Positions 254 through 18,100 of a stretch of 64,000 nt of DNA are shown one piece after another. Every line of letters begins with the position of its first letter. Within the stretch, counting starts at the first letter, position 1. Made by a program: the position numbers and the translations under genes. This DNA comes from Clostridia bacterium (GTDB lineage Bacteria; Bacillota; Clostridia; Christensenellales; UBA3700), in contig JAIDRT010000053.1 in NCBI GenBank assembly GCA_029061605.1, forward strand, positions 1 to 64,000, read 5' to 3'. Under the pieces are notes generated by a model. That model did not search any database, had not been told where the DNA came from, and saw only the letters and a list, made by a program, of their open reading frames with translations.

Positions 254-2239
254 TTAAAGCACCTTCCTTGTAGTATTTGGGCTATAGGTAGCAAAGATTT
301 GCTCAAAGTTTGTGCCGACAGAATCATTTGCCATACTGCTGTCACGGAATACGGCATACAGTGGTTTCATTTGAGCAATAGTCTTGACGACTTCGTCAGT
401 TATATCTTTGTCAAAGCAAGCAATCAAATCATTGCCATCGACAATAAAGACATGTTTACCTGCAATTTCTTTCTCTTCTATCTTGGCTGATAATGGCTTA
501 CCTAAATCAAGCATAACTTGGAAAAGCAAGTCAAGCGGAGTTCTATCCTCTTTGATATTATCCTCAAACATATCCAACAATGTTTGATTATAGTCCTCTG
601 GACGATAGTACACGTCTTTCATATTTGACGAATCTAACTTAAGTACACGGAAACCTGTATCTAATTTGTTCAAATTATTCTGCATTTTCAATTCATCACA
701 TAATGCAAATACTCCTTTATCTTTTATGGCATTAGTTAATCCTTCTATAGTGTTTAGCTGCTCACCATTTTTGATTTCAAGAATTTTCTTGCCTGCACGA
801 CGAATGCGCTCTTTGCCTATCTCGCAAATATTTTTATATCCGGCCTTATGTGCTTCGCTATTTTCATCACATGACTCCGGTAATTGTACCATAATAAATT
901 TACGATTTCCACCATCTTCTGCATTTAATTGTATAACGGCATGAGCAGTAGTTGCTGACCCTGAAAAAAAATCGAGAATAACCGCATCTTTATCAAATTT
1001 TGTTGTTATTGAAATAAAATATTTTAATAAAGCCACCGGCTTTGGAAAACCAAATATTTTCTTGTCAAATAATTCGTTTAGATCAGCGGTACCCACTTTT
1101 GTCATTCCTATTTCTTTTGGAAGATTTGTAGATACTGCGATATATCCAAATAACTCTCCTGCTTTTTGTTCATCGTCATCTTTAAAATATCTAAAAGCAG
1201 GTTGCGAAATCTTTAAGAAATCATAATCATCAGGAAAAACAATTTTGCCTTGCTTATAATACTCATCAAATGTATCAATTGTTACAGCCCATGTTCTATT
1301 TGGATTCGCTGGGTATTCTTTGCCCGTTTTGGGATTTATCATAGTAAAATTGCTATTGGGGCGCTCGCTAGCATTTCTTTGGGTTGTTAAATCATGTATT
1401 CTCCAAGGACGTCCTGGAAAATCATTAGTATCAAAATACTTTCTTGTTCCGCCCTCAATAGCCGCCGAGAAATCTTGTGATTTTGCATACACCAAAACCC
1501 ATTCATAATCCTGCGAAACCCCAAAAGGCACATCTGATTTAGCTGTCCTTTTTCTCCAAGGAAACATTGCTACAAAATTACTTTCACCAAAAATCTCATC
1601 ACAAGTTTTCCTTAAATTCTCAACTTCATTATCATCAATGCTAATAAATATTACCCCATCATCGCTTAACAAATCTTTTGCTAAGCGCAAACGCGGATAA
1701 ATCATATTAAGCCAATCAGTATGAAATCGACCGTTGCTTTCGGTATTTTGCACCAAACGATTACCATACTCATCATATTGTCCACTGTTATCTAAATATT
1801 CTTCACTGTCTTGTGAAAAGTCGTCATTATATACAAAATCATTGCCTGTATTATATGGTGGGTCTATGTAAATCATTTTAATTTTACCAAGATAGGTCTC
1901 TTGCAAAAGTTTTAGTACTTCAAGATTATCTCCCTCGATATAGAGATTTTGTGTATTATCAAAATCAACACTCTCTTCCTTACAAGGGCGCAACGTAGCA
2001 GATATGGGAGTATTGGCAAGAAGTATTGACTTGTTCTTATCTGGCCAAGTAAATTGATAGCGCTGTTCTTTATCATCTACCAACACGTTACTCATTTCTT
2101 GTTTGAGTATATCAAAGTCAACGGCTAGCGTTGGCTCCCCGTCTCTCAACACCTCCGTTACTGCATTAGGAAACAATGCCCTAATCTTTTGTATATTTTC
2201 TTGTACCTTGTCCATTGACTTCATTTTAAGCTTGTCCAT
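254..2239 (-). CDS. Type III-like site-specific DNA-methyltransferase (adenine-N6, Mod)
   Basis: IYIDPPYNTGNDFVYNDDF (DPPY motif IV) and VILDFFSGSATTAHAV (SAM motif I), in beta-class order, with intervening target-recognition region. Confidence 0.93.
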   Translation of the reverse strand: MDKLKMKSMDKVQENIQKIRALFPNAVTEVLRDGEPTLAVDFDILKQEMSNVLVDDKEQRYQFTWPDKNKSILLANTPISATLRPCKEESVDFDNTQNLYIEGDNLEVLKLLQETYLGKIKMIYIDPPYNTGNDFVYNDDFSQDSEEYLDNSGQYDEYGNRLVQNTESNGRFHTDWLNMIYPRLRLAKDLLSDDGVIFISIDDNEVENLRKTCDEIFGESNFVAMFPWRKRTAKSDVPFGVSQDYEWVLVYAKSQDFSAAIEGGTRKYFDTNDFPGRPWRIHDLTTQRNASERPNSNFTMINPKTGKEYPANPNRTWAVTIDTFDEYYKQGKIVFPDDYDFLKISQPAFRYFKDDDEQKAGELFGYIAVSTNLPKEIGMTKVGTADLNELFDKKIFGFPKPVALLKYFISITTKFDKDAVILDFFSGSATTAHAVIQLNAEDGGNRKFIMVQLPESCDENSEAHKAGYKNICEIGKERIRRAGKKILEIKNGEQLNTIEGLTNAIKDKGVFALCDELKMQNNLNKLDTGFRVLKLDSSNMKDVYYRPEDYNQTLLDMFEDNIKEDRTPLDLLFQVMLDLGKPLSAKIEEKEIAGKHVFIVDGNDLIACFDKDITDEVVKTIAQMKPLYAVFRDSSMANDSVGTNFEQIFATYSPNTTRKVL

Positions 2240-3218
2240 AATTTCCTCCAGATGATTTTGATGCAGTCTTTATTGCTTTCTTATTTTCTTTTGCCAACTT
2301 TTCTCCTTCAGCAACTATCCTTCTACGTTCTTCTGTAAAATTTACATTTTCATTCGTCGAAAATCTTAAACACACTGCTGTTCCATTGAAACTGGGTTTA
2401 AATAATGTTTTCTCTCCTTTTGCATTATATCTTATAGCATAATTATTACTGCAAATAGTAAAAGAACCCTTATAGGTTTTGCATAATTCCTTAAGAACAT
2501 ACAATCCATAACCACTATTACTCCATTCATTATCCCTTCCCAAATATGGATGGTTTGATTTAGCCGATATTCCTGGCGCAAGTGATAATTCCAACAATTC
2601 TATTTCTGGCAAGTCTTTTGAATACCGTCTCATCGCCTCTGCTACGCCACATCCTTCATCTAAAACTGCAATTTCCACAAGATTATGAGTTATCCATCGT
2701 TGAGCGCAAACAAATGCTTTATTACTTTGAGAATGTTCATAAACATTCCTAATGGTCTCTATAAAAGCATATTGTAAGAATTTTGCCAAATCCCGATCAA
2801 ATTGAAAAACTTGTGCCAATTTAAATGCTAATGGCTCAATCTCATCATAGAAATTTAATGAAGCAAAGTCAATTTTGTGTATAGGAATATATGTGTTACT
2901 ACCCCTTGCTTCACCCATCCGTTTTCCACTCTTAGTACTACCCATAGCATTATAAAATCCCATATGTCCCAAATAATCTTCAGTATTTGGATGCGTATAT
3001 TTAAATACTTTGTTAGGATATTTATTCCTAAACCGAAAAAGTTTTCTTGCAATTAATAACATATTAAATGGGTTTTTATCTTTCAGCCCACTTAAATCAA
3101 AAATAATTTCTGTAGCTTCAGTATGTTCATTATCTAAATCTAATAACGTTTTAAATACATCATTATTACCAGTATAAATCCCATTTTTAATAAAGTATGT
3201 ATATTGCGAATCATTCAT
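2226..3218 (-). CDS. GHKL (HATPase_c) ATP-binding protein with STAS-like N-terminal region
   Basis: ETIRNVYEHSQSNKAFVC (N-box), VLDEGCGVAEAM (G1), NSGYGLYVLKELC (G2). N-term IIFDLSGLKDKNPFNMLLIARKLFRF...LGHMGFYNAMG is STAS-like. Overlaps neighbours by 8-14 nt. Confidence 0.75.
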   Translation of the reverse strand: MNDSQYTYFIKNGIYTGNNDVFKTLLDLDNEHTEATEIIFDLSGLKDKNPFNMLLIARKLFRFRNKYPNKVFKYTHPNTEDYLGHMGFYNAMGSTKSGKRMGEARGSNTYIPIHKIDFASLNFYDEIEPLAFKLAQVFQFDRDLAKFLQYAFIETIRNVYEHSQSNKAFVCAQRWITHNLVEIAVLDEGCGVAEAMRRYSKDLPEIELLELSLAPGISAKSNHPYLGRDNEWSNSGYGLYVLKELCKTYKGSFTICSNNYAIRYNAKGEKTLFKPSFNGTAVCLRFSTNENVNFTEERRRIVAEGEKLAKENKKAIKTASKSSGGNYGQA

Positions 3219-3852
3219 ACAATATTTCTAACTCCTTTTTCAAATCCTTCAATTCCGCATTCAGTTCAAATCGTTTCTTTGATTGCTTTTCATTATCAAC
3301 TGCTCGTTGCAATTTATCAATTTCTTTTTGCAATCTTAACACTTCTCCATAGCGCAAGGCATAATCTCTTGCCGATTCTTTATCTCTCGGCTTAATAGGA
3401 ATTATCGTAGACAACACCGACCTATATATCTCGCTCATACTGACTGCCGTCAATGGCAATTGGATAGTCAAGTCGTCTAGCCATTCACTACAATAATACT
3501 TGTCAATCCTCATTCCCTTTTCGCTATACTCTTTGAATGCGCCATAAGCCATATATTGTTCTTTACAGTTTAGCACAAACAACGTTTGTACTGCAAACTT
3601 TTTATCTAATGCAGCTATAAATAGATTAGGAATTACCTTGCCGTTAAGTTCAATGACAATAACGTATATATTTTTTACTTTGTCGTCTTTTTGCGCAATA
3701 TTCATTGTGTCTTTATTGATAACGTTGGTAACAGTTACTGAAAGAACGTTACTCGCATTTTCCTTTACTTGTTTATCCGCCTTGATTTCTTTAAACAAAA
3801 AAGGAATCTTCAATACTTGACTTACTTGCGTCTTACTACTCAATCCAAACAT
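3211..3852 (-). CDS. DUF4391-like protein of a restriction-modification/helicase operon
   Basis: 213 aa: KIPFLFKEIKADKQVKENASN... and C-terminal coiled coil LQKEIDKLQRAVDNEKQSKKRFELNAELKDLKKELEILYE. Position between helicase and methyltransferase is typical of DUF4391. Confidence 0.65.
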   Translation of the reverse strand: MFGLSSKTQVSQVLKIPFLFKEIKADKQVKENASNVLSVTVTNVINKDTMNIAQKDDKVKNIYVIVIELNGKVIPNLFIAALDKKFAVQTLFVLNCKEQYMAYGAFKEYSEKGMRIDKYYCSEWLDDLTIQLPLTAVSMSEIYRSVLSTIIPIKPRDKESARDYALRYGEVLRLQKEIDKLQRAVDNEKQSKKRFELNAELKDLKKELEILYE

Positions 3853-6800
3853 TATTTTACCACCACAAACGCAATTAGTTCAAAGTCGTCAAGCCCATCA
3901 AAACTTTGTTGAAACAATACTTTGCTGTCTCCTTTAAATAGAGCTCTCATATCACTTTCTTCCTTGACTTGCAAAATACTCGCAACTGCATTGTCCAACA
4001 ATTCGCTATACTTATCCATCTTTGCGCCGTCTTTTGTCTCTTTATTAAACTTGCGACAAAGCGCAGCAATAGGCTCAGTCTTGCCCTTTGACGTAGCGCG
4101 AAGTACGTCAAGAATTGACTTGACGTCCAAATGATTATACTTGACTTCTCCGTCTTCTTTGAGATAAACAAGATAATATGGATGCAAACGATTTTGCTTG
4201 TTTATATTGACACTATTATTACGATTGCAAAGCACGAAGATTACGCCTTTCTCAATACCTTTACTTTCGTCAGCCTCAACGACTGCATGCAATCCCTTTG
4301 TGACACCCGTAGGATAGCCATTCTCCTTGCGATATGAATCCAAGTCCATAATAAAGTCATTGAGTCCCAAATCAGTGATAGATATATTGCCGTCAACGTC
4401 TTCAAGATCTTGCAATGTGCCTTCTTGCAATTTCTTAAGTTGTTCCTTGCGGTAATCCATCTCTTCGTTTTCTTCCGCAATAATATTATCGTCCGCAGTT
4501 GCGGTAGCGTTTACGATAGTCATTCTCGCAGACACTCGCTTATTAAGATTTATATATTCATCAAGTGATATATCCGGCCAAAAGTTGACTAGTTGAATTT
4601 GACTATTTTTACTGCCAATACGGTCAATACGTCCAAATCTTTGCACTATGCGAACAGGATTCCAATGTATATCATAATTAATACAAATATCGCAATCTTG
4701 CAAGTTTTGGCCTTCGGATATGCAGTCCGTACCAATAAGTATATCTATTTCTCCCTTATCAGTTCTCAACGTCAAATCTCTTTGCTTTGACAACGGCGAG
4801 AATAGCGTAAGCAATCTATCCGTATCGTTGCGTCCACCCATGTTTGATTTATTATTGTTGCCACCTGCAATCTTTGCTGTATATAAGCCATACCGCTCGT
4901 ACATATAATGAGAGAGTTCGTTATACAAATAATCAGCTGTATCCGCAAATGCAGAAAATATAAGAATCTTCTTGTTATTCTCATTGAGCGGATGAGCAAT
5001 TTTGTCATCGATAATTGACTTCAACTCGCTAAGCTTTCTATCTGCATCGGCAGTCACTCTTTGCATCTCAGCACAGATTTCTCTCAAAATACCAATATCA
5101 TTTTCAATATCTTCCTTCCACGTTACTACGTCCAAATCATTTAGGTCTATATCAATTTGTTTGCCAGATGACGTCTTTGTCAAAGTAATATCTTCTTCAT
5201 CGTCATCAAGATAGTTGCTCACATACGTATTAGTTTCGGCTTGTATTCTGGCTTTCTTATCTCCTGCAAGAAATTTGTTGATTGTATCCAAAGTCTTTTG
5301 ATTTATATCTATCAACTTGCCAAGCGAAAGCCTAAACGAAAAAACACTACTCTCCAATCGCTTTAATAGACTTATTGTCATCAACTTCTTCAAGCCTGAT
5401 TCACGATGACGTTGTCTTGACAAACCTTGACCAAAGTTGTTAGCATTTCTACTCTCACTCTTCAAATCAATCTCATACAAATTCTCATACTTTTCCAATC
5501 TGGACGGAAGCAACATTGCAAGCGGAGCGTATACGTTCATTGTCATTTCCAAAAGTTTGTTGTAAATCTCTTTATACTTCATTATTGACGGATTGTCGGT
5601 CAGTTTTGGATAATAAGACTTTGTTGGCAATCTCTTTGGGAAATTGCCAATGTCCTTTATGTCATAATATTTTTGTATATGCTTTCTACTTCTTGCAATT
5701 GTTACGCTATCCAATATAATTGAAAAATCAATGTCAAGGTTGTCCATCAAATCTTTTGCATGACGCTCGCCTATTGGTAACTTGCTCCAATCATTGAATA
5801 CCTTTTGCGCATTTCTAAAAACAGTTTGCACGTCTTTGCTCAAACCTAATGCCGCATTCATCTCGGAATAATCTCCGCAGTACGCCAATAACAATTGATT
5901 CTTCAAATCATTATAACGGTTATTTACTGGAGTCGCAGATAGCATAAGTACTTTGGTCTTGACGCCTTCTTGCATAATGCGTTTCATCAAGAAATCATAT
6001 CTAGTGTCTTTATCCTTGTTTGCCGAGTTGTTATTGCGAAAATTGTGACTCTCGTCTATTACCACCAAGTCGTAGTTGCCCCAATTTTGCGTAGCAAGAT
6101 CAATCTGACCACGCTTACCGCTTGTTCGTCCCAAGTCAGTATGGCAAAGCACGGTAAAACTAATTCTATCTTTGTAAAATATATTAGTATAACTATTATT
6201 TTGATTTTGATATTGAGTCCAGTTTTGCTCCAAACGCTTTGGACAGAGCACAAGGATGGATTTGTTACGCAAAGAATAATACTGCATGACAGCAAGCGCA
6301 GTGAACGTCTTACCTAAGCCTACACTGTCTGCCAAGATACAGCCATTGTATCTTTCAAGTTTATTGATTACACCTACTGCTCCGTCTTTTTGGAAATTGT
6401 ATAGTTTGTTCCAAATCAAACTATTCTTGAATCCCGTCGCCTCATTTGGCATGTGGTCCTCATCCAAATCACGTAGAAAGTCTTTGAAAATGTTATATAA
6501 AATTATAAAATAAATAAACTCTGGGGAATTCTCTTTGTAACAACTTGATATGTAATCTACCACTGCGTCAGTAATATCTTCCAACTCTACATCATTATTC
6601 CAAAGCCTATCAAATTCATTTATAAAATACTTGCTTTGCTCAGCATAATCACTTTTTGCAATACCCACAAGTTTGTCATTATTCTTCTCATATCCTAAAT
6701 CAGAAGTCGTAAATCCATTCAATGGCGAATAATGAATGGAACTATCGCCGTTGGTGACGTTCAACATTGTTTGAGTGTCATACGACTCTTTCAACGTCTT

Positions 6801-7154
6801 TATCTTTACTTTCTCTCTTATCCAGTCAGCGCACTCTCTAGCTATCGCACGTTGCGTCATTTGATTTTTGAGCTTAATCTCAAACTCAGTACCGCAAATA
6901 CCACTTTCAGAAAGTTTAGGTATATAAAATTCTCTCTTCTCTTTTTTGATATTATCATTTACCTTTTCGCCTATAAACGTTGGCGTAGTAAATAGAAACT
7001 TCAATTCGTCAATCTGGTCAAGTTCTTCTTTTAGAGCGTCATAAGCATAGATAGAGAAATAGCAAGCTGCGATACGCAATTTGCTACCGCTTTTGATTTC
7101 TCTTTTCAAATCATCACCCAACAATTTTGTTCTGTTGTTAATAATGTCAATCAT
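3852..7154 (-). CDS. SNF2-like/helicase-related protein with PLD-like N-terminal domain
   Basis: ILADSVGLGKTFTAL (Walker A), DLVVIDESHNFRN (DExH), VLMLSATPVNN, IGTDCISEGQNLQ and QRFGRIDRIGS. N-term PLD-like LRIAACYFSIYAYDAL...GFTTSDLGY. Start placed at 7154 (MIDIINNR) by upstream GAGGAG; the track's start is 7199. Confidence 0.85.
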   Translation of the reverse strand: MIDIINNRTKLLGDDLKREIKSGSKLRIAACYFSIYAYDALKEELDQIDELKFLFTTPTFIGEKVNDNIKKEKREFYIPKLSESGICGTEFEIKLKNQMTQRAIARECADWIREKVKIKTLKESYDTQTMLNVTNGDSSIHYSPLNGFTTSDLGYEKNNDKLVGIAKSDYAEQSKYFINEFDRLWNNDVELEDITDAVVDYISSCYKENSPEFIYFIILYNIFKDFLRDLDEDHMPNEATGFKNSLIWNKLYNFQKDGAVGVINKLERYNGCILADSVGLGKTFTALAVMQYYSLRNKSILVLCPKRLEQNWTQYQNQNNSYTNIFYKDRISFTVLCHTDLGRTSGKRGQIDLATQNWGNYDLVVIDESHNFRNNNSANKDKDTRYDFLMKRIMQEGVKTKVLMLSATPVNNRYNDLKNQLLLAYCGDYSEMNAALGLSKDVQTVFRNAQKVFNDWSKLPIGERHAKDLMDNLDIDFSIILDSVTIARSRKHIQKYYDIKDIGNFPKRLPTKSYYPKLTDNPSIMKYKEIYNKLLEMTMNVYAPLAMLLPSRLEKYENLYEIDLKSESRNANNFGQGLSRQRHRESGLKKLMTISLLKRLESSVFSFRLSLGKLIDINQKTLDTINKFLAGDKKARIQAETNTYVSNYLDDDEEDITLTKTSSGKQIDIDLNDLDVVTWKEDIENDIGILREICAEMQRVTADADRKLSELKSIIDDKIAHPLNENNKKILIFSAFADTADYLYNELSHYMYERYGLYTAKIAGGNNNKSNMGGRNDTDRLLTLFSPLSKQRDLTLRTDKGEIDILIGTDCISEGQNLQDCDICINYDIHWNPVRIVQRFGRIDRIGSKNSQIQLVNFWPDISLDEYINLNKRVSARMTIVNATATADDNIIAEENEEMDYRKEQLKKLQEGTLQDLEDVDGNISITDLGLNDFIMDLDSYRKENGYPTGVTKGLHAVVEADESKGIEKGVIFVLCNRNNSVNINKQNRLHPYYLVYLKEDGEVKYNHLDVKSILDVLRATSKGKTEPIAALCRKFNKETKDGAKMDKYSELLDNAVASILQVKEESDMRALFKGDSKVLFQQSFDGLDDFELIAFVVVK

Positions 7155-7218
7155 GCTTATATCTTCTCCTCGACACGAACTTCTACGGATATTCGACAAA
7201 ATTCATATCGTTAAGACA

Positions 7219-7428: not shown

Positions 7429-10400
7429 ATGGCACATCAACCGGGTGGAGAAACTGAGAAATTAGGAAACTTTTATGAAGATAACGTATTAATACACTAT
7501 TATGGACAAATGTTAGAAGGAAAATATTTGTCAGTAATGTCTGAATCATTTGATAGTGATTTGGAAAAAGGCGGAGATATTTATCTATGCGATAATGATA
7601 ATAAAACTACTGTCATACAAGTAAAGTCTAGGCATGGAAATGATGATGTATGGGACATAAGTACTCTCATTAAAATAGGGGTTATCAAAAATGCATGCCA
7701 TCATATTTTACAAGGTAGAACATTTATATTAGCTTCCCCATTATCTTTCATGCTTTTACAAGACTTGTGTAGACATGCTATGTCCTTTGATAACTATGCG
7801 GATTTCCAAGCAGCAGTTCTAAGAAAAAATAATGCTCAAGAACTTATCAAGTTGGAAACGGAAATCAAAAAATACTTTGTTAGCGATGATATAATTAAAT
7901 TCTTTAAATCATTTTCTTTAATCCGATTTGACGACGATTTAGATAAATTTGTTAGAGATTTTAGAAATAGTATAAAGTCGATAGATGATGGACATAAGGC
8001 ATTTCAATTATTACGTCAGTACCCTATAAAACACAATAAATTATCTCAAGAAATATATGCAGATGAATTATGGCGTTTTCTATCTGATAAAGGAATAAAA
8101 AAGTATGACATTGATGAGCCAACTGCAACAAGACAAATCCACGATTTATGTAATGAATATAAAACTAATATCAATCGAAAGTTGATTAATCAAACAAACT
8201 ATAAACGTAAAGAATTTGACGAACTAATATCTAAAATAAGTAATAGAAGTATTACAATTATTCATGGTAAAGCCGGTTGCGGTAAAAGTGGAATAATAGC
8301 AAAACTATGCGAACATTTGGAAAAACAGAACGAATTATATTTACCTTTAAGCTTAGATGCTCGAATGCCTAGCGGATGTACACATGAGTTTGGGAAACAA
8401 CTAGGATTAAGTGCTTCCCCAGTATTAACGCTTTCAAAACTTGCTAATCAACGTATAGGGTATCTTATTATTGACCAAATGGATGCAATTCGTTGGAATG
8501 TAACACATTCAACATCTGCTTTTTCAGTGTGCTGCGAATTAGTCCAAGAAGCACAGTATTGTGAAAATGTAAAAATAATATTTGTTTGTAGGACAATAGA
8601 CGCAGAAAAGGTATTACAATTATTCAATGATAGCCCAACGAAACTAACTGACTGCTCTATTGTCGTAGGGCCGCTAACTGACAGTGAGGTCCAAAATATT
8701 ATTGGTGGGCAGTCATATTATGGCCTTACCCCGAACGTAAAAAAAATGCTCACTAATATTAACAACCTCAAAATGTTTATGACAATATCTAATGGTACTC
8801 ATATAGATAAATCCTCGGATATTATTCGAGAATATATAAATAAAAAGTTAGATGAGATTGCAAATGACAATGAGCACGAAATCTCCGCTCGCAAACTTCT
8901 TCAATATATAATCAATAAAATGTGTAACCTAAATACACAAGTAATTGCGCGAAATGAAATAGAAAATGAATTTGGCAACAATTTGCTGGAAAAATTTTGT
9001 TCCTGCGGAATCACTGAAGAAATTAATTCAAGCATTCGCTTTACTCATCAAAGCATATTAGATTATTACTTAGCACAAGAGTTAGAAAATGAAATAGCTA
9101 AGCGTAATAATGTAGTGAAAGTAATTAAAAAGCACAATAAGACTGCAATAATAGATTATGACATATTGAAACAATACTTTGAATTTGTCGAATTAAATAG
9201 TTCTAATTATGCCAAAGTAATGGAAAAGGTATTATTTAGTTCCAAGATATGTTCATTTATTCGCCATATTGCCCTCGAATCCTTTAGGACAACGTCTCAC
9301 GATGACGTAGAAACTATTGCCTTAGCGCTTAAAATATTAACAAGTAAAAAATATGGTAAAAAATACTTGTTATATCTAACCATTGGTAACTATGCTTTTG
9401 CGCATGGATATATTGAATCGGCAAACTTTTTAGAACTGAAAAAGTCGACAACTCCTGCAGACCAATTATCAGTTATTGATCTTTTGTTTTATGCCAACAA
9501 TCAATGCGAGCAATATCTTGCTCATATCAATGATTATATAAAAATAGTAAACTATGATACTAATGTCGTGGAGCATCTATATCATCAAATAGATGACACA
9601 ACCTCATCTGATAAGATGTTTGAATTGAAGATTGGCTTATTATCACATATCCCCAATCAAAAGCGCCATATCTACTGGGATGAAGTTTTCTCTTTGCCAC
9701 CATCTCGAGCTGGAATGTACATAAAGTATTCTCTATCGAATAATGATGACTATAACGAGCATTTTGATTGGTCTGATCATTTTGAAACATTGTTAAATAT
9801 AGTAAAACTCGAACATCAAAACTACTTATGTGCTGCAAAAGATTATTTAATTAGAACTTGTAAACGATGGGAGTTAGACGGATATGACGATTTCAAGTAT
9901 CATTTTATAAAAGCGATGGCAAAAAATTTATTGGAGGCCTCTTTCAGCTTTTCGACACCTAATGAAATACTTGATTTTCTTTATTCTCCGTACCAACTTT
10001 TTAAAAACATTGCATTGCAGTATATGACCCACTGCAATACAAATAATGCTTTATGCGTATTTGAACGATTAATAGATGATAACTATATTAGCAAGTTAGA
10101 TTTTAGAAAACATAAAGCCCAACTTGGCTCTTTACGTGATATAGTAAAAAACCATAGTTCAAACCTTAATGCAGATTATCTAAATTCTCTAATAAAACAA
10201 ATTAAATCTTATAAGTCCCCTAGCTTAATAACATTTGCTAAAGATAGATTTGAGCAACGTAAAAAGGGATTGTATTATCATTTTTTTGAAGAAGAACAAA
10301 AGATATTACTATCGTCTATTCCACATGAAAAACTCAATAATTCAACTTGCGAATATCTAAAATATTTGTTAAGAAAATTTCCTGCTGCAGAATACTATTA

Positions 10401-11898
10401 CAGTTTTTCTGATTATATGATTGGAGAATTTCGTAGTGTTGTAAGTGGGATAATAGACAAATGGCCTAAATTCAGCATTAAAACTTGGAAAAGACTCCTT
10501 ACTAATCCCAAAACAGGAAACCGTAAGTTTACTAGAGAGGAGATTAATGCAAGTGGAAATTATGTAGAATATGATAGAAGTAGTTTTGTACAAGCAATCT
10601 CTACTGCCGCAAGTATTAAGCAAACTATGTTTGCTGAAATTGCTCTTAAATCAAATAATATCCCAAGATATTTTATTAATGCTATATGCTCTGGAATAAG
10701 TGGAAACGAAAAAGATGCAAATCAGAAAAATCATACAAATGAAATTGTTGATATCTGCGATGTTAATATTCGTTTAGAAGTTTTCAAGAAATATTATGAT
10801 ATTACCAATAAAGAGTTTTTGCATTCATTGATTAAATTTATTGAGCATAATGATATATTTGATACTTGGATTGAATCTAAATTGATTGAGATTGCTCAAA
10901 ATTCCGAAAAATACGAGACAGAAATAATGAATGTGTGGCATGCCGATTGGGATGCGAATTTAGATTCGCTTACAATAAATGATTTAGAAACAGAAAAAAT
11001 TAATCGTGTACAAACTTGTGCCATCACGGTTTTAGCAAATAATCTATATGTAAAAAAATGCTTAGATAGTACAATTAAAAATATTATCGACGAGTGCTAT
11101 GAATCATCTCATCCTGTTTTATTGTTATCTGCTATTGATTTGATATGCCCTATCTGGAATTTTGATAAACAATACGCAATTGATATTTATACGAAGATTC
11201 TAAAAAAAGACATGAGAACAATCTGCGGATACAAATCGATTAATCTATTAGATCGTGCTGCAATAAAATATCCAGATAATTTTAGTAATATTCTCAGTGA
11301 GGCCATTACTACTGGTAAAAGCTATTTAAAAACAATTGGCTCAAGAATAGTTTATTATTACTGTTATTATGGTATTTATGAAAACCTAATAAAACAGATA
11401 ATTAAAACTAAACCCAAACTGATAATCTCTTGCTGTACTGACATAATTAAAAATAATAATGCTGATGAAAAAATTCAAAATAGGACGAAAAAATTATTAT
11501 TATCCATTGAGTCAAAGAGCATTCGCACATCCGATCCAAACTCTTTAAGAGATATTATACTTGATTCTGATAAAGATTCAAAATTTACAGTATCAATAAT
11601 TAAGAAAATGCTTCCTCTAGAAAAACATGAATGGTATGGCATTCTATCGGATTTAAATGATCTTGATTGTTTATCAAAACAGAATCGTATTGTATATTCA
11701 ATATGCGATAATGTAATATCACAACAAACTCTATCATTGTATGAAATTAGAAAATTAGTTGACGTCGTAGTCAAACTATATGCAGAACTATATGATAGTA
11801 ATGAAAACAGAAAGTTGAAACAATGTCTTAAAAGATTAAATAAAATATACGATACTTTTGTTATTGATACTATTCAAGTCGCAAATATAATTGGTTAG
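7429..11898 (+). CDS. STAND/NACHT-type NTPase with N-terminal PD-(D/E)XK (Cap4/DUF4297-like) nuclease domain; Avs-like candidate defence protein
   Basis: N-term GNFYEDNVLIHYY...EKGGDIYLCDNDNKTTVIQVKSRHG (E/D-QVK nuclease pattern). IIHGKAGCGKSGII (Walker A), IGYLIIDQMDAI (Walker B), KIIFVCRT (sensor), RFTHQSILDYYLAQEL (STAND/NACHT winged-helix signature). Long helical C-terminal region. Confidence 0.8.
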   Translation: MAHQPGGETEKLGNFYEDNVLIHYYGQMLEGKYLSVMSESFDSDLEKGGDIYLCDNDNKTTVIQVKSRHGNDDVWDISTLIKIGVIKNACHHILQGRTFILASPLSFMLLQDLCRHAMSFDNYADFQAAVLRKNNAQELIKLETEIKKYFVSDDIIKFFKSFSLIRFDDDLDKFVRDFRNSIKSIDDGHKAFQLLRQYPIKHNKLSQEIYADELWRFLSDKGIKKYDIDEPTATRQIHDLCNEYKTNINRKLINQTNYKRKEFDELISKISNRSITIIHGKAGCGKSGIIAKLCEHLEKQNELYLPLSLDARMPSGCTHEFGKQLGLSASPVLTLSKLANQRIGYLIIDQMDAIRWNVTHSTSAFSVCCELVQEAQYCENVKIIFVCRTIDAEKVLQLFNDSPTKLTDCSIVVGPLTDSEVQNIIGGQSYYGLTPNVKKMLTNINNLKMFMTISNGTHIDKSSDIIREYINKKLDEIANDNEHEISARKLLQYIINKMCNLNTQVIARNEIENEFGNNLLEKFCSCGITEEINSSIRFTHQSILDYYLAQELENEIAKRNNVVKVIKKHNKTAIIDYDILKQYFEFVELNSSNYAKVMEKVLFSSKICSFIRHIALESFRTTSHDDVETIALALKILTSKKYGKKYLLYLTIGNYAFAHGYIESANFLELKKSTTPADQLSVIDLLFYANNQCEQYLAHINDYIKIVNYDTNVVEHLYHQIDDTTSSDKMFELKIGLLSHIPNQKRHIYWDEVFSLPPSRAGMYIKYSLSNNDDYNEHFDWSDHFETLLNIVKLEHQNYLCAAKDYLIRTCKRWELDGYDDFKYHFIKAMAKNLLEASFSFSTPNEILDFLYSPYQLFKNIALQYMTHCNTNNALCVFERLIDDNYISKLDFRKHKAQLGSLRDIVKNHSSNLNADYLNSLIKQIKSYKSPSLITFAKDRFEQRKKGLYYHFFEEEQKILLSSIPHEKLNNSTCEYLKYLLRKFPAAEYYYSFSDYMIGEFRSVVSGIIDKWPKFSIKTWKRLLTNPKTGNRKFTREEINASGNYVEYDRSSFVQAISTAASIKQTMFAEIALKSNNIPRYFINAICSGISGNEKDANQKNHTNEIVDICDVNIRLEVFKKYYDITNKEFLHSLIKFIEHNDIFDTWIESKLIEIAQNSEKYETEIMNVWHADWDANLDSLTINDLETEKINRVQTCAITVLANNLYVKKCLDSTIKNIIDECYESSHPVLLLSAIDLICPIWNFDKQYAIDIYTKILKKDMRTICGYKSINLLDRAAIKYPDNFSNILSEAITTGKSYLKTIGSRIVYYYCYYGIYENLIKQIIKTKPKLIISCCTDIIKNNNADEKIQNRTKKLLLSIESKSIRTSDPNSLRDIILDSDKDSKFTVSIIKKMLPLEKHEWYGILSDLNDLDCLSKQNRIVYSICDNVISQQTLSLYEIRKLVDVVVKLYAELYDSNENRKLKQCLKRLNKIYDTFVIDTIQVANIIG

Positions 11899-11980: not shown

Positions 11981-14674
11981 TTAATTATCTGTTTTTTTAT
12001 TAATCAAATCTGCGCTATCATTTTTATTCCGCAAATACGGAGAATTAACCGAAAATCCCGGCGGCGTCTGTTTAAATGTAATATCGTCATTTTGCAACAT
12101 TATTGATTTTTGTTGAAAGGCCCTTAATTTCTTTATATCAATCTCACCTACCAATATTGTTTTATTCAATCCGCCTTTCGTCTTTACTATATTCATCATT
12201 TCCGTTTTGGTCGGTTGCACTATTCTACTGTCACCATAATCCGATGAATTAACCTGGACGCAATAACAATGCAAATCTCTTGATAACGACTCAATAATAT
12301 TGGAATAATAATTTATATCCTTATTCCACTCTACCGCGATTAATAAATCTAGCATATTCGCAAATATGGCCCTATCTTTTATCGAAGCCAACTCATAGCA
12401 GCAATATACTGGGAAATAAACTCCTTTCCATCTATATAATTCATAGCCATTACCCGACTTATATTTTTGATTAAATCCTTCTATCAATTTAATCTCACTA
12501 GGTGCATAATGACACTTGTGATGGAACGTTATACTTGCGTAATTGTAATCTTTCCAATTATATGGAAGAATGACTCCAGTAAGATTATATACCGTCCTAT
12601 CTCTATCTCCGCCTGTATTTGTTAGATAGTATTCAATTCCAGTAATTACTGCTATTTGATTCCTTGCACAAATATTAGCTAGTAGTGGCATCATTTCAAA
12701 TGGAACATAACATTCTGGTAAAACTAGAATATCCACTTTTTCCTGAATAGCCAAATTCACTAACTGCTTAATCTCTTGATATCTCTTATTTGCAAAATGC
12801 TTCTCCCCTCGAAGCAGCCCTTCAATACGATTATAATCTATTTTCGCATTGCCTATTGCTATTTTTAATGTTTCTTTATTATCAAAGTCTTTGTCTGAAA
12901 TATCAATAAGAACATTAGTTGCATTGCCATCTATTTTGCTAGTATTAAAGAATTTCTCAAAACTTCCATCGCCACTACCAAAATTATTCATTCCCTGATA
13001 CAATTTCAAAACATATCGGCCATACTTTTGTTTACTTAATTCTTCCTTATCACTTTCTAATTCACAACACTTTAATGCAAAAGAGATTTCTTGGGGAGTA
13101 ACTGTAAATGGCAAATACTTATAATAGTTTTTGGCTTCCATTTCTTCTTCTGAAACATTAAGACACTTTAATGTTTTAACAACTTTATCAAAACTATATA
13201 AACACTTTAACTCGTTACTATCATCAACAAATTCTATAAATATAGGAAGCAAATATTTGTTAAACATCCTCGTCGTTCTATATGAACGCATTATAGGCAT
13301 ATATTCATCTTTCCTATTATAAATCTTATATATCTTTGTCATCAAATTATGAATATCCGCCTCTCCAAGCAATGCAACTGGTCGATACGCACTTATTAAC
13401 AGATACTTCTTCAAGCATTCTTTACCTTTGCTTATTATTCCTTCTTGCGCTCCACCCTTTCCACACATTTGGTTTTCTATTATTTCAAAGATATCCTTAA
13501 TTGTATCCAATAACGTATCATATTGCCCATTAACAATCAGAATTTCAAAGATCCTTTCCCACAATGAGTAATTATCAATAAAAAGCCTAGGATCAAACAT
13601 ATTCAAGATCCCTCTAATCACTTTTATCTCTTTTTTATCGCTAATTAAACTTGTAACTTTCAATAATTTGCCAAGTGCCTTTGATGCCCCATATTTATCA
13701 AATTCAAACTTTTCTATGCCTCTAAATTTATTTATGCTCTCTTTATTTATTAATTTAAAAAACTCACCATAATCATTGTCATCAACCAAGCAGTCAACTC
13801 CTGGCATAAATTTAAATCCGCTTGCATTCTTTGCAATTTGCCTCCTAAAACAATCAATCAATGCACTTGTAGCACTTTCTTTAAAATAAAAAACCTTAAC
13901 TTTGTGTCCTTGCAATGAAATGCGAGAGTTTCCAGACATTACATTCGATTCTATATAATATTGTATGTATCCTTTTTTATCGTTATCTACTTTCGTTTCG
14001 CCATGTAAAATGGCTTCATGTGGCTTACATTGACTTGTCCTATCACAACAACAGTTTATGAAGAAATAGTCCATAATTTTATCTTGATTTAAGACATCAT
14101 TCTCGGATTGAACGTATAAATCAGATATCTTCTCAACTTTATCTACCATAATTATATCATCAACGTATCTTCCGTAATACACTGGATTAATTCTCGTAAT
14201 AATTGCTTTATCAAAATCCCTTAACTTCCAGTTTGAAAGAATCATTGATGGCATAAATCCTATAGGCAACATTGTGTTTTTTCCGTCAGCAAAATCCGCA
14301 TCCCCAGATTGTCTTAAAATATCTGAATATCTCGCACAAATCCTATACACCAAATTATTAATTCTTTCTAATAATCTTTCTATACTTACTTTATCTACCC
14401 CTTCTATTGTGTCGCTCTCGTTCTTTGCATAATTCTTATATTCATCATAAATCTGCGCAAAATCTGCTTCTATCATATCTACTGAATAGAAATACCTCGT
14501 TAAATCCATTGTGATTATTATGGCGTCCTGTTTATCTTTTAGACATCTTTCGGCCTCACTCAAAGCATGCTCGCGCCAAGACTCATATTGTGTAAAATAT
14601 GGTTCAAATAATTTCGGCGAATTTTTATGCTCTAAATCTTTCAAAAGTCTATTGGCATACGCATGCTCATACAT
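11981..14674 (-). CDS. Reverse transcriptase (RT core from motif 2/3) with C-terminal nitrilase (C-N hydrolase) domain; DRT1/UG1-like, larger fragment of a split gene
   Basis: IIITMDLTRYFYSVD (RT A motif), LPIGFMPSMILSNWKLRDFD, YGRYVDDIIMVD (YVDD catalytic motif). C-term nitrilase triad: VLPECYVPF (E), FHHKCHYAPSE (K), YFPVYCCYELA (C). Confidence 0.87.
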   Translation of the reverse strand: MYEHAYANRLLKDLEHKNSPKLFEPYFTQYESWREHALSEAERCLKDKQDAIIITMDLTRYFYSVDMIEADFAQIYDEYKNYAKNESDTIEGVDKVSIERLLERINNLVYRICARYSDILRQSGDADFADGKNTMLPIGFMPSMILSNWKLRDFDKAIITRINPVYYGRYVDDIIMVDKVEKISDLYVQSENDVLNQDKIMDYFFINCCCDRTSQCKPHEAILHGETKVDNDKKGYIQYYIESNVMSGNSRISLQGHKVKVFYFKESATSALIDCFRRQIAKNASGFKFMPGVDCLVDDNDYGEFFKLINKESINKFRGIEKFEFDKYGASKALGKLLKVTSLISDKKEIKVIRGILNMFDPRLFIDNYSLWERIFEILIVNGQYDTLLDTIKDIFEIIENQMCGKGGAQEGIISKGKECLKKYLLISAYRPVALLGEADIHNLMTKIYKIYNRKDEYMPIMRSYRTTRMFNKYLLPIFIEFVDDSNELKCLYSFDKVVKTLKCLNVSEEEMEAKNYYKYLPFTVTPQEISFALKCCELESDKEELSKQKYGRYVLKLYQGMNNFGSGDGSFEKFFNTSKIDGNATNVLIDISDKDFDNKETLKIAIGNAKIDYNRIEGLLRGEKHFANKRYQEIKQLVNLAIQEKVDILVLPECYVPFEMMPLLANICARNQIAVITGIEYYLTNTGGDRDRTVYNLTGVILPYNWKDYNYASITFHHKCHYAPSEIKLIEGFNQKYKSGNGYELYRWKGVYFPVYCCYELASIKDRAIFANMLDLLIAVEWNKDINYYSNIIESLSRDLHCYCVQVNSSDYGDSRIVQPTKTEMMNIVKTKGGLNKTILVGEIDIKKLRAFQQKSIMLQNDDITFKQTPPGFSVNSPYLRNKNDSADLINKKTDN

Positions 14675-14688
14675 TGACGAACTTGAAT

Positions 14689-14711
14689 CTAATGCTTTAC
14701 TAATGCTTTAC
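14689..14711. repeat. 11-bp perfect tandem duplication (TAATGCTTTAC x2) at the RT split point
   Basis: 14690-14700 and 14701-14711 are both TAATGCTTTAC; the period-11 match extends one base to 14689. It shifts frame by 11 nt. Confidence 0.95.
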
Positions 14712-15105
14712 CAATAAACATAGTCCACACTACGCCCAAAATGTGCCCTTCTAACGGCAAATCAATAAAGTGTTGCCATTTCTCAATTTCAACTTTGTTC
14801 TTTTTAGATTTCTTATTAAATATAATGTTTTTGCTTTCCTCAACTATACTCTTAGGAAAAGAATGTATGGAAATACCTTCTAGTATCATATTGGATAGTT
14901 CATTCCACTCTTTTTCGTCTTTGTCAATTAAATCACTTATTGTCTTGGATATTCTTAAAACGTGTTTCTCTTCTTCGCCAGCAAATTCTTCATCTACCAC
15001 TATTTTATGTCTTAAAAATGCCTGCGTTTTATCAAAATTAACACTTGCCTTCAACTTTTTATATGCAATAGAAATTAATTCCATAATATCTTTATATTCA
15101 AACAT
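14689..15105 (-). CDS. N-terminal fragment of the RT-nitrilase protein, truncated by the tandem duplication
   Basis: MFEYKDIMEL...IDLPLEGHILGVVWTMFIGKALVKH*. AGGAG upstream of ATG 15105 (track start 15129). Deleting one 11-nt repeat unit gives ...MFIGKALDSSSSMYEHAYANRLLKDLEH..., in frame with the 897-aa ORF. Confidence 0.85.
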   Translation of the reverse strand: MFEYKDIMELISIAYKKLKASVNFDKTQAFLRHKIVVDEEFAGEEEKHVLRISKTISDLIDKDEKEWNELSNMILEGISIHSFPKSIVEESKNIIFNKKSKKNKVEIEKWQHFIDLPLEGHILGVVWTMFIGKALVKH

Positions 15106-15132
15106 ACATTTTCTCCTTTGCGTAACCAATAT

Positions 15133-18100
15133 TTATTTATTATCGTTTTTCATAAATTTGATATCTGGCAAAACAATTTTTGTTTCTTGATACTCTTTTC
15201 CAAGCTCATCTGTTTTCTTCCACCACACAATCATCCTAACAGTCGCAGATACTGGTGTAAATCCTTTTGCTACAAATCCGTCTATTCTAGCATTCATTGC
15301 ATCGGATAATTGCAGGACTTTGTTACCTAATGAATTGAAGCAAATATATTTCTCTACTTTACGCCCATCTGCTAATTCTACCCGTTCTTTCTTTATCGAA
15401 AGTGCATCTCCACTTTTTAATCCCTCTATATCTTTCTTTAAGAAATAGAATGACGATAGATGTACGCCTTTAAATGAGACTGGAAGTATCATTTCGCCTG
15501 ATTCCTTATACATAGTGTTGTCTACTTTTTCCACTACTCCACTAGCATTGATCATTTCAAAATAATTAGTATTGCAATGGATATAGAGATTGTTTATTGC
15601 TCTCGTCATTGCAACGTAAATAAGACGTTTTTTCTCATCTGTTGTAGGAGTTTGCTTTAAAACCAGAAAGACATTGTCAAATTCTCGACCTTTTGCCTTG
15701 TGAATGGTTGAAACAACGATTTGAGAATTTTGTGTTTTGCAAAAATCTTCCAATTTAGACTCATAAATGAATTGAAGAAAATCTGTTTTATATTTAGTTT
15801 TTTTATTAGTTGATTCAAAATCCGCAATTAGATTTTTTACATAATCATATGCGCTACTTTGCGAATACTCTTGCGCAGTCTTTCTTTTCGCTCTTTCCCA
15901 TATTTCATTATCAATAAAATAATCATCTTCCCTTAAACCTAATGAATCAACAAAATATCTCATCTCTACTAGATTATAAATATTAAATCCGTTGTTATCT
16001 TGAATTAGCCTTGCTGATACGCCGTTATTGTTTAACATTCCTGCAATTGTCGCTGCGTCATCATTCGTTTCCGTTAAAATACATACTGATCCTGATAGAT
16101 CTTTATTCATTATATCTTCAACAACAGGCTCTAATATATTAGGCGAAATATATCTCGTTATGAATACCTGTCCATTCTCTTTTCTTACCGCCTTAATTGG
16201 AGTCTCCTTTAAACGATTTGACAAAGTAGTAACAAATTTATTTGCCAACTCAACAATATTTCTTCCACTACGATAATTTTCAAGTAGTTCATACTTTGTT
16301 GCTTTATAATCAGTAATTAGTGATTTCAAATACTTGGAGTCTGACTTTCTAAATTCATAAATATTCTGATCATCGTCTCCTACCGCAATCACTCGCATGT
16401 CGTCATTAACTTCCATTAGCGCTTGCACTAATGAGAACTCCGTCTCACTCATATCTTGAGCCTCGTCTATAACCAATACGCTCTTAGTAATTTTGTTCGT
16501 CTCTATTTCTCCAGACCTTATGCCCTCAACTGCTCTTTCTATTATAGTATCCGTATCCGTCAAAGTACCTACTCGTCCAAGCAAATCAAAACAATATGAA
16601 TGGAACGTGCTTATCTGTATAAAATTTGCCGCATTACCAATCATATCAGGCGACATTAATCTCTTTTTAAACTCTGTTGCAGCTGCGCGTGAAAAGGTAA
16701 GCATCAACATTTGTTCATGCTTGATATCTTCCATCATATACAATGACGCCAATTTATGCACCAATACTTTCGTCTTACCGCTACCGGGGCCTGCGGCTAC
16801 GACTATATATTTTGAGCTTGCATCCTTAATTATACTCAACTGTTTCGAAGATAGCTCCCCAAATAACTTTTTATATTTCTTAGGTGTGATATTCTTTGAT
16901 ATCTCAGACTCTCTACCCTTGAAGTATTTACGCAGAAAACTATCATGATTTAAACTAAAATAATCCTTAACGAATAATTGCGCACCTTGCTCGTCCTGTG
17001 CCATTTTCTTTGCGTACTCGCCTACTATATGAATCTGCTGAATCTTACTCTTATAAAATTCGTCAAGCCTTTTATAATCCTCTTTAGTATACTGACGTTT
17101 CATATCTTCGATGCGTTCAATTCGCATAGCATTATATGCTACTAAAAATGCACCATCGAGTCTCAAAGCTTTTATTCTGGAGAGATAATATAGTGCATCA
17201 TCCACCTCGTCAGATGTGCAACCATTACCTAATAATGTGCCATTTGCATATTGTTCTTTTAATTCAAGACAGGAAAACTCAACACCTATCTCATCTTTTT
17301 TTACACGATTCGAACTTTCCAAACCTTTTTGGAAAAGATATTTAATTATGAAATTAGCTAATTGCAAGCGTTGCTCACTCTTTTCTATCAGATAATCCGT
17401 AGAATAATTTGATTTAACAATAATTAAATCTTTGATCTCAGTATTTGCCTTCTTAATTAAATGTTTAATCTCATAAAAATTAAGAATATCTCTAATTTTC
17501 TTTATGTTTACAGTAGGTATACTCTCTTCAAATATTTTATTTATTTCTTTTAAATTTATCCTTTTTTCTTCCTCGGAAACTACTTCAATAATTAATTTTT
17601 CAATTTTGGCATACTCTGATAAAATAGCCAAAGATGCGTTTGCCCTACCATTACTCTTGATAAGCGCTATCAAATCTTTAGCATCTGCTAATATTCTCTC
17701 TTCTCTTAGAGCATTGATTATTCTTATGATATTTTCTTTAACTATACCTAATCTATCAGAAAGATAATCAACACGAGTTTCTCCTTCGCAATTGTCAAGT
17801 GCTTCGTGCGATTTAGCAGATATCAAGCTCTTAATCAAACGTATTGCGTCTTGTTTATCTTTATCATTCGCAAATTTCTGTGATGCTATTATGCTATTGC
17901 GCGTTTCAAGCATATTATTAACCAAAAGGCTATTTGCATATATTCTCGGCATATTTTGTCCGCGTTTAATAAACCCCACTTCTTCAAGCGCAGCAATTGC
18001 AGTTCTAATGCGAGACTCCATCTCTCTCTGGTTAACAGTATCGTCCCAACCAGCAGCTCGAGCAATCTCCAATGCAGATTGCGATGTAGTATTTCTAATC

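What the first reader, a model, noticed from the sequence alone, without database searches (positions are those of the whole stretch)
7429..11898. Avs-like STAND ATPase with N-terminal nuclease and a ~900-aa sensor region without recognised family
The N-terminus has a Cap4/DUF4297-like nuclease pattern (GNFYEDxV ... GGDIYL ... VIQVKSR), followed by a STAND core ending in RFTHQSILDYYLAQEL. This is the architecture of antiviral STANDs that recognise conserved phage proteins. The long C-terminal region did not look like any repeat family I could name, so the trigger may be new.
Basis: partly seen in the sequence, partly recalled or inferred. Interest (0 to 1): 0.72.

Follow-up and report, generated by a model that had tools for sequence, protein, structure and literature searches.

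The report
Nuclease-armed bacterial immune receptor, HEAT-like sensor
This gene encodes a large single-protein alarm, probably against bacterial viruses, made of a DNA-cutting front end, an ATP-driven switch and a long coil-shaped sensor; it belongs to a widespread, unnamed relative of the known Avs immune receptors, and in nature the same switch-plus-sensor body is found fused to several different 'weapons'.

Summary
The 1,489-aa ORF at 7429-11898 is real and has the architecture claimed: PD-(D/E)XK nuclease (E17, D50, Q64-x-K66), STAND ATPase (Walker A 280-288, Walker B 345-356, HQSxLDY 540-546) and a ~930-aa C-terminal region. That region is not featureless: it is colinear and conserved in a family of full-length homologues from about ten phyla, and AlphaFold2/Foldseek reads it as a HEAT-like alpha-solenoid. 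The N-terminal 640 aa have Avs3 and Avs4 as top structural matches, yet no PADLOC or NCBIfam Avs model reaches E 1 on the window protein, and the family profile does not detect a genuine Clostridium Avs4. The strongest evidence is effector exchange: in three Clostridium members a body 42-53% identical to nuclease-type members carries an Avs4 effector (46% identical to true Avs4); more distant bodies carry caspase or SEFIR/TIR domains. The sensor diverges faster than the switch in 11 of 11 disjoint close pairs. Best explanation: a single-gene, Avs-like abortive-infection nuclease receptor sensing an unknown phage ligand. Phage defence, ligand and DNA cleavage are untested here. A distant homologue is already in the PDB (9n00), so this is a new member of a known kind.

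The parts
7429..11898 (+). whole gene: single-protein nuclease-STAND-solenoid receptor, 1489 aa
   Evidence: ORF; full-length family alignment A2, 55 sequences
7429..7878 (+). N-terminal PD-(D/E)XK nuclease domain, remotely Cap4/DUF4297-like (residues 1-150)
   Evidence: conserved E17, E39, D50, Q64-x-K66; helix-strand-strand-strand order in AF2 model; hhalign to Cap4_nuclease proteins P 1.6e-5
7477..7479 (+). catalytic-type residue E17
   Evidence: invariant in the 62 members carrying this N-terminus
7576..7578 (+). catalytic-type residue D50
   Evidence: D in 54, E in 8 of 62 members
7618..7626 (+). catalytic-type motif Q64-V-K66
   Evidence: Q and K invariant in the N-terminal alignment
8194..9108 (+). 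STAND NTPase core with winged-helix end (residues 256-560)
   Evidence: weak Pfam NPHP3_N/nSTAND/NACHT hits; Foldseek of residues 1-640 to Avs3/Avs4, NLRP3, NLRC4
8266..8292 (+). Walker A GKAGCGKSG (280-288)
   Evidence: G283, G285, K286 invariant in 67 aligned members
8461..8496 (+). Walker B YLIIDQMDAIRW (345-356)
   Evidence: D349, Q350, D352, R355, W356 invariant
9046..9066 (+). HQSILDY motif closing the STAND module (540-546)
   Evidence: H540, Q541, D545 invariant
9109..11895 (+). C-terminal HEAT-like alpha-solenoid, putative sensor (residues 561-1489)
   Evidence: AF2 model pLDDT 81, almost all helix; Foldseek to importin-beta, CAND1, condensin HEAT subunits; colinear family conservation; faster divergence than the STAND core
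10285..10488 (+). block of the solenoid with three invariant residues (953-1020; Q957, R982, W1020)
   Evidence: role unknown, possibly contact with the ATPase or a conserved ligand site (inference)

Best explanation
A single-gene, Avs-like (bacterial NLR-related) abortive-infection receptor. Inferred cycle: the HEAT-like solenoid (561-1489) keeps the protein inactive and recognises a phage-encoded protein; binding lets the STAND ATPase (256-560) exchange nucleotide and oligomerise; this brings the N-terminal PD-(D/E)XK nucleases (1-150) together so that they cut phage and host DNA and stop the infection. Shown here by computation: the three-module architecture, conserved catalytic and ATPase residues, deep full-length family, solenoid fold (model), effector swapping in relatives, defence-island location. 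Inferred from Avs1-5: phage ligand, oligomerisation, DNA cleavage, cell death.
For: Architecture and invariant residues. Foldseek of residues 1-640: Avs3 E 4e-13, Avs4 E 2e-12, then NLRP3/NLRC4. Effector exchange: Clostridium L057 residues 6-251 are 46% identical to a true Avs4 (E 9e-58), while its residues 174-1457 are 51% identical to the nuclease-type member L035; the swap is nested inside the nuclease-type clade (SH-aLRT 99). Homologous bodies carry a caspase domain in L117 and SEFIR/TIR in L118. The solenoid diverges faster than the STAND core in 11 of 11 disjoint close pairs (identities; one-sided sign test about 0.0005). Neighbours are defence genes: DRT, RecQ/UvrD helicase, PLD-SNF2 helicase and type III methyltransferase here; SIR2-HerA and type I R-M at the closest relative. 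No conserved partner gene. Sporadic: 1 of 149 nearest genomes (its own), 6 of 391 in the class.
Against: No direct evidence of phage defence for this family. The Cap4/DUF4297 link is remote. The HEAT assignment rests on a model with pTM 0.58 and low TM-scores against long superhelical proteins. The window protein sits on a long branch (1.74 changes per site) with one close relative, so its ligand may differ from the rest. Faster sensor divergence also fits relaxed constraint. DNA rather than RNA as substrate is assumed.
Confidence: 0.8

Rival explanations
1. It senses an infection-induced host change (DNA damage, chaperone titration, nucleotide pool) rather than binding a phage protein directly; the solenoid binds a host factor.
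For: A bacterial NACHT protein, bNACHT25, senses phage through the host chaperone DnaJ (title and abstract of PMC12169576). HEAT solenoids bind many kinds of ligand (one search lists several). The family is spread over about ten phyla with one colinear sensor, which a conserved host target would also explain.
Against: Avs1-4 recognise phage proteins and Avs5 senses a phage protein (PMC12931631); the sensor diverges faster than the switch, more natural for a changing viral ligand.
Confidence: 0.2
2. It is a degenerate copy or a distant variant of one of Avs1-5 that the models miss.
For: Foldseek top matches are Avs3 and Avs4; NCBIfam Avs4 matches a swapped member over residues 10-458.
Against: No Avs model in PADLOC or NCBIfam reaches E 1 on the window protein; the family profile does not detect a true Avs4 even at E 10; motifs are intact and the frame is open.
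Confidence: 0.07
3. A STAND regulator without an immune role (for example a MalT-like transcription regulator) whose N-terminal domain binds but does not cut nucleic acid.
For: Some STAND proteins are transcription regulators (MalT, PMC10427625).
Against: Conserved PD-(D/E)XK residues; effectors exchanged for Avs4 nuclease, caspase and SEFIR/TIR domains; sporadic presence in defence islands.
Confidence: 0.04

Closest known systems
Avs4 (AVAST type 4; NCBIfam NF041815; PDB 8dgf)
   Same: N-terminal nuclease, STAND ATPase, long C-terminus; structural match of residues 1-640; family members in Clostridium carry an Avs4 effector
   Different: Window protein has a Cap4-like, not Avs4-type, nuclease; STAND and sensor are not detectably homologous to Avs4 by sequence
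Avs3 (PDB 8dgc)
   Same: Best Foldseek match of residues 1-640, E 4e-13; nuclease-STAND order
   Different: 2028-aa chain; no Avs model match by sequence; sensor not shown to correspond
PDB 9n00 / 9n01 / 9yix, 'AAA family ATPase', 1523 aa
   Same: Only solved structure with clear sequence homology: E 7e-34 to the family profile, nuclease and STAND plus a weaker stretch over the C-terminal half (E 2e-4)
   Different: Distant and outside the family core; no paper found, so its function is unknown to me
Avs5 (SIR2-STAND, senses JADA; PMC12931631)
   Same: STAND with helical-repeat sensor; a weaker Foldseek match
   Different: SIR2 NADase effector; TPR/Sel1/PPR-type repeats, not HEAT-like
Cap4 / DUF4297 nucleases (Pfam PF14130)
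   Same: Shared helix and D...QxK motif, hhalign P 1.6e-5
   Different: Below Pfam detection; no SAVED sensor here
PADLOC candidate PDC-M54A
   Same: Partial match mainly in and around the STAND core (E 1e-7 for the window, up to 3e-19 for relatives)
   Different: Covers only a fraction; no PADLOC model covers the family

Membership tests
Avs / AVAST (types 1-5) | N-terminal effector with intact catalytic residues | tested here: met
   E17, D50, Q64-x-K66
Avs / AVAST (types 1-5) | STAND ATPase core with Walker A and B | tested here: met
Avs / AVAST (types 1-5) | long helical C-terminal sensor | tested here: met
   AF2 model, nearly all helix
Avs / AVAST (types 1-5) | sequence match to a curated Avs1-5 model | tested here: not met
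   none at E 1 in PADLOC or NCBIfam; true Avs4 not detected by the family profile at E 10
Avs / AVAST (types 1-5) | activation by a specific phage protein, oligomerisation, abortive nuclease activity | not testable with these tools
   needs experiments
Cap4 / DUF4297 nuclease | PD-(D/E)XK active site with QxK | tested here: met
Cap4 / DUF4297 nuclease | match to Pfam PF14130 | tested here: not met
   no PF14130 match at E 1 in the protein or at E 0.001 in the genome
Cap4 / DUF4297 nuclease | profile-profile homology | tested here: inconclusive
   P 1.6e-5, probability 79%, 73 columns
HEAT-repeat solenoids | alpha-solenoid of antiparallel helix pairs | tested here: met
   Foldseek to importin-beta E 6e-7 and many HEAT proteins, with low TM-scores
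HEAT-repeat solenoids | match to Pfam HEAT families | tested here: inconclusive
   not in the window protein; weak, below cut-off, in relatives
The unnamed full-length family defined here | colinear nuclease + STAND + solenoid of about 1490-1590 aa | tested here: met
   window and L015 form their own deep branch

The most novel reading that the evidence does not exclude
The STAND plus HEAT-like solenoid is a new, widespread bacterial sensor class beside Avs1-5 that recognises a conserved phage structure other than terminase, portal, Ksap1 or JADA, and it is a portable receptor body that evolution fuses to nucleases, caspases or SEFIR/TIR effectors.
Probability: 0.3. Interest if true: 0.68.

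Novelty: new member of a known kind. Interest (0 to 1): 0.47.

Why it matters
It defines a large receptor family in Bacillota, Pseudomonadota, Planctomycetota and other phyla that no PADLOC or NCBIfam model covers. The Clostridium chimeras with an Avs4 effector are natural domain-swap experiments: they say that effector and receptor are separable modules, and they offer related pairs (L035 versus L057, about half identical in the body, different weapons) for testing whether the ligand is read by the body alone.

Tried and rejected
Close relatives by single-protein scan of viral contigs and of phage records: none. Conserved partner gene: none; about 120 nearest flanking genes share no common family. 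E. coli genomes: no DNA match for the Providencia member. Paper searches for 9n00 and for 'Avs6-8' found nothing relevant. Foldseek of the solenoid against viral models: only generic solenoid matches. Promoter scan not above chance. Rejected: pseudogene (open frame, all motifs intact) and chance ORF.

Full report
OBSERVATION. The ORF at 7429-11898 (+) encodes 1489 aa, with an AAAAGG-like ribosome site just before the ATG. Its large neighbours on both sides lie on the - strand, and its G+C (0.28-0.32) is lower than most of the window. Walker A (GKAGCGKSG, 280-288) and Walker B (YLIIDQMDAIRW, 345-356) complete the STAND core.

FAMILY. A search of 149 near genomes found only the gene itself; 391 genomes of the class gave five further genomes at about 25% identity, two of them matched over essentially the whole length. 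A profile-guided scan of genome contigs found 185 relatives, of which the best 80 were kept. Most intact members are 1490-1590 aa and match the profile from first to last residue. Nineteen columns are invariant in a 55-sequence alignment, including four in the C-terminal region (Q957, R982, W1020, L1467). The closest relative, L015 from a Clostridiales MAG, is 62% identical over the whole length; all others are about 20%. In the tree the two form a separate branch of length 1.74, and the family spans Bacillota, Pseudomonadota, Thermodesulfobacteriota, Planctomycetota, Myxococcota, Lentisphaerota, Bdellovibrionota, Nitrospirota and others.

NUCLEASE. E17, E39, Q64 and K66 are invariant, and D50 is D or E, among members with this N-terminus. 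The model shows the helix-strand-strand-strand order of PD-(D/E)XK enzymes. Relationship to Cap4/DUF4297 is remote: no Pfam hit, hhalign P 1.6e-5 and 79% probability.

STRUCTURE. AlphaFold2 with 52 sequences modelled residues 1-640 at pLDDT 86; Foldseek ranks Avs3 (4e-13) and Avs4 (2e-12) first, then NLRP3 and NLRC4. Residues 548-1489 were modelled with 56 sequences at pLDDT 81, pTM 0.58, nearly all helix; Foldseek returns importin-beta, karyopherins, CAND1 and condensin HEAT subunits from 6e-7. TM-scores are low, as is common for long flexible solenoids, so 'HEAT-like' is a fold class, not a homology claim. By sequence, only one solved protein is a clear homologue: 9n00/9n01/9yix, 'AAA family ATPase', E 7e-34, with a separate weaker match in the C-terminal half. 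I found no paper on it.

EFFECTOR EXCHANGE. Three Clostridium members (L057, L060, L094) share 42-53% identity with nuclease-type members in STAND and solenoid, but their N-terminus is unrelated to this nuclease. PADLOC and NCBIfam name the L057 N-terminus Avs4. Against a true Clostridium Avs4 (L111, over the curated cut-off), L057 is 46% identical over residues 6-251 and no further, whereas residues 174-1457 are 51% identical to L035. The chimeras nest beside L035 (SH-aLRT 99). More distant plasmid homologues carry a caspase (L117) or a SEFIR/TIR domain (L118) on a homologous body; the solenoid profile matches L118 at 3e-27 along almost its length and L117 at 1e-16 in pieces. Since the same profile finds only 9n00 below E 0.05 among all PDB sequences, which include many HEAT proteins, these are not generic repeat matches.

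EVOLUTION OF THE SENSOR. Among eleven disjoint pairs of close relatives read, the solenoid is less conserved than the STAND core in all eleven (one-sided sign test about 0.0005), and than the nuclease in ten. By 50-residue bins, relative divergence is 0.44-0.95 over 251-550 and about 1.0-1.55 beyond 600. This fits a sensor under changing selection, but also weaker constraint.

CONTEXT. In the window the gene stands between a PLD-SNF2 helicase / DUF4391 / GHKL-type ATPase / type III methyltransferase group and a UG5-nitrilase reverse transcriptase with a RecQ-UvrD helicase. Its closest relative stands between SIR2-HerA and a type I restriction system. The G182 homologue has a gene next to it that I read as SIR2-like and, on the other side, a PLD-helicase pair (by eye). 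Flanking genes across the family include restriction-modification proteins, defence candidates, recombinases and transposases, with no constant partner. So it is most likely a single-gene system.

KNOWN SYSTEMS. Avs1-4 degrade phage and host DNA after recognising terminase, portal or Ksap1; Avs5 senses JADA (PMC12931631). The window protein has their architecture but fails the sequence test for each type, so I file it as an Avs-like receptor of a separate, unnamed family, not as Avs1-5. Ligand, oligomerisation, cleavage and protection are inferred.

VERDICT. A real and well-supported Avs-like receptor. The kind is known; the family is unmodelled in the libraries searched; the effector swaps are the most informative new point.

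Noticed in passing
window 11981-15129 (-): The UG5-nitrilase defence reverse transcriptase is split in two ORFs: 14689-15129 matches positions 23-132 and 11981-14674 positions 137-895 of one PADLOC model. A perfect 11-bp tandem duplication lies at the junction, 14690-14711: inactivation, switchable slippage or assembly error.
   Followed up: partly
window 254-7199 (-): Four-gene group: type III methyltransferase, GHKL-type ATPase, DUF4391 protein, PLD/HKD-SNF2 helicase (PADLOC C3a139). Looks like a restriction-like defence operon with an unusual GHKL ATPase.
   Followed up: no
window 15133-19986 (-): 1617-aa RecQ-UvrD double helicase, with what I read as an exonuclease-like N-terminus, next to the reverse transcriptase; a relative occurs in the Clostridium locus L034.
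   Followed up: no
L057 7461-11831, L060, L094: Clostridium receptors with an Avs4 effector on this family's STAND-solenoid body.
   Followed up: yes
L117 1-9275: Conjugative Tolypothrix plasmid with a run of trypsin-like peptidase, caspase-STAND-solenoid and a further caspase gene.
   Followed up: partly
L103 1-4566: C-terminal fragment of a family member beside a transposase (ISL3-like by eye): a copy probably broken by insertion.
   Followed up: partly
L009 / L059 and relatives L046, L050, L081, L086: Subclade in which the nuclease GVD motif reads (S/G/A)VE (D50 to E); active or altered nuclease unknown.
   Followed up: no
PDB 9n00, 9n01, 9yix: Solved 1523-aa 'AAA family ATPase' homologous to the family, with no paper found in the library.
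   Followed up: partly
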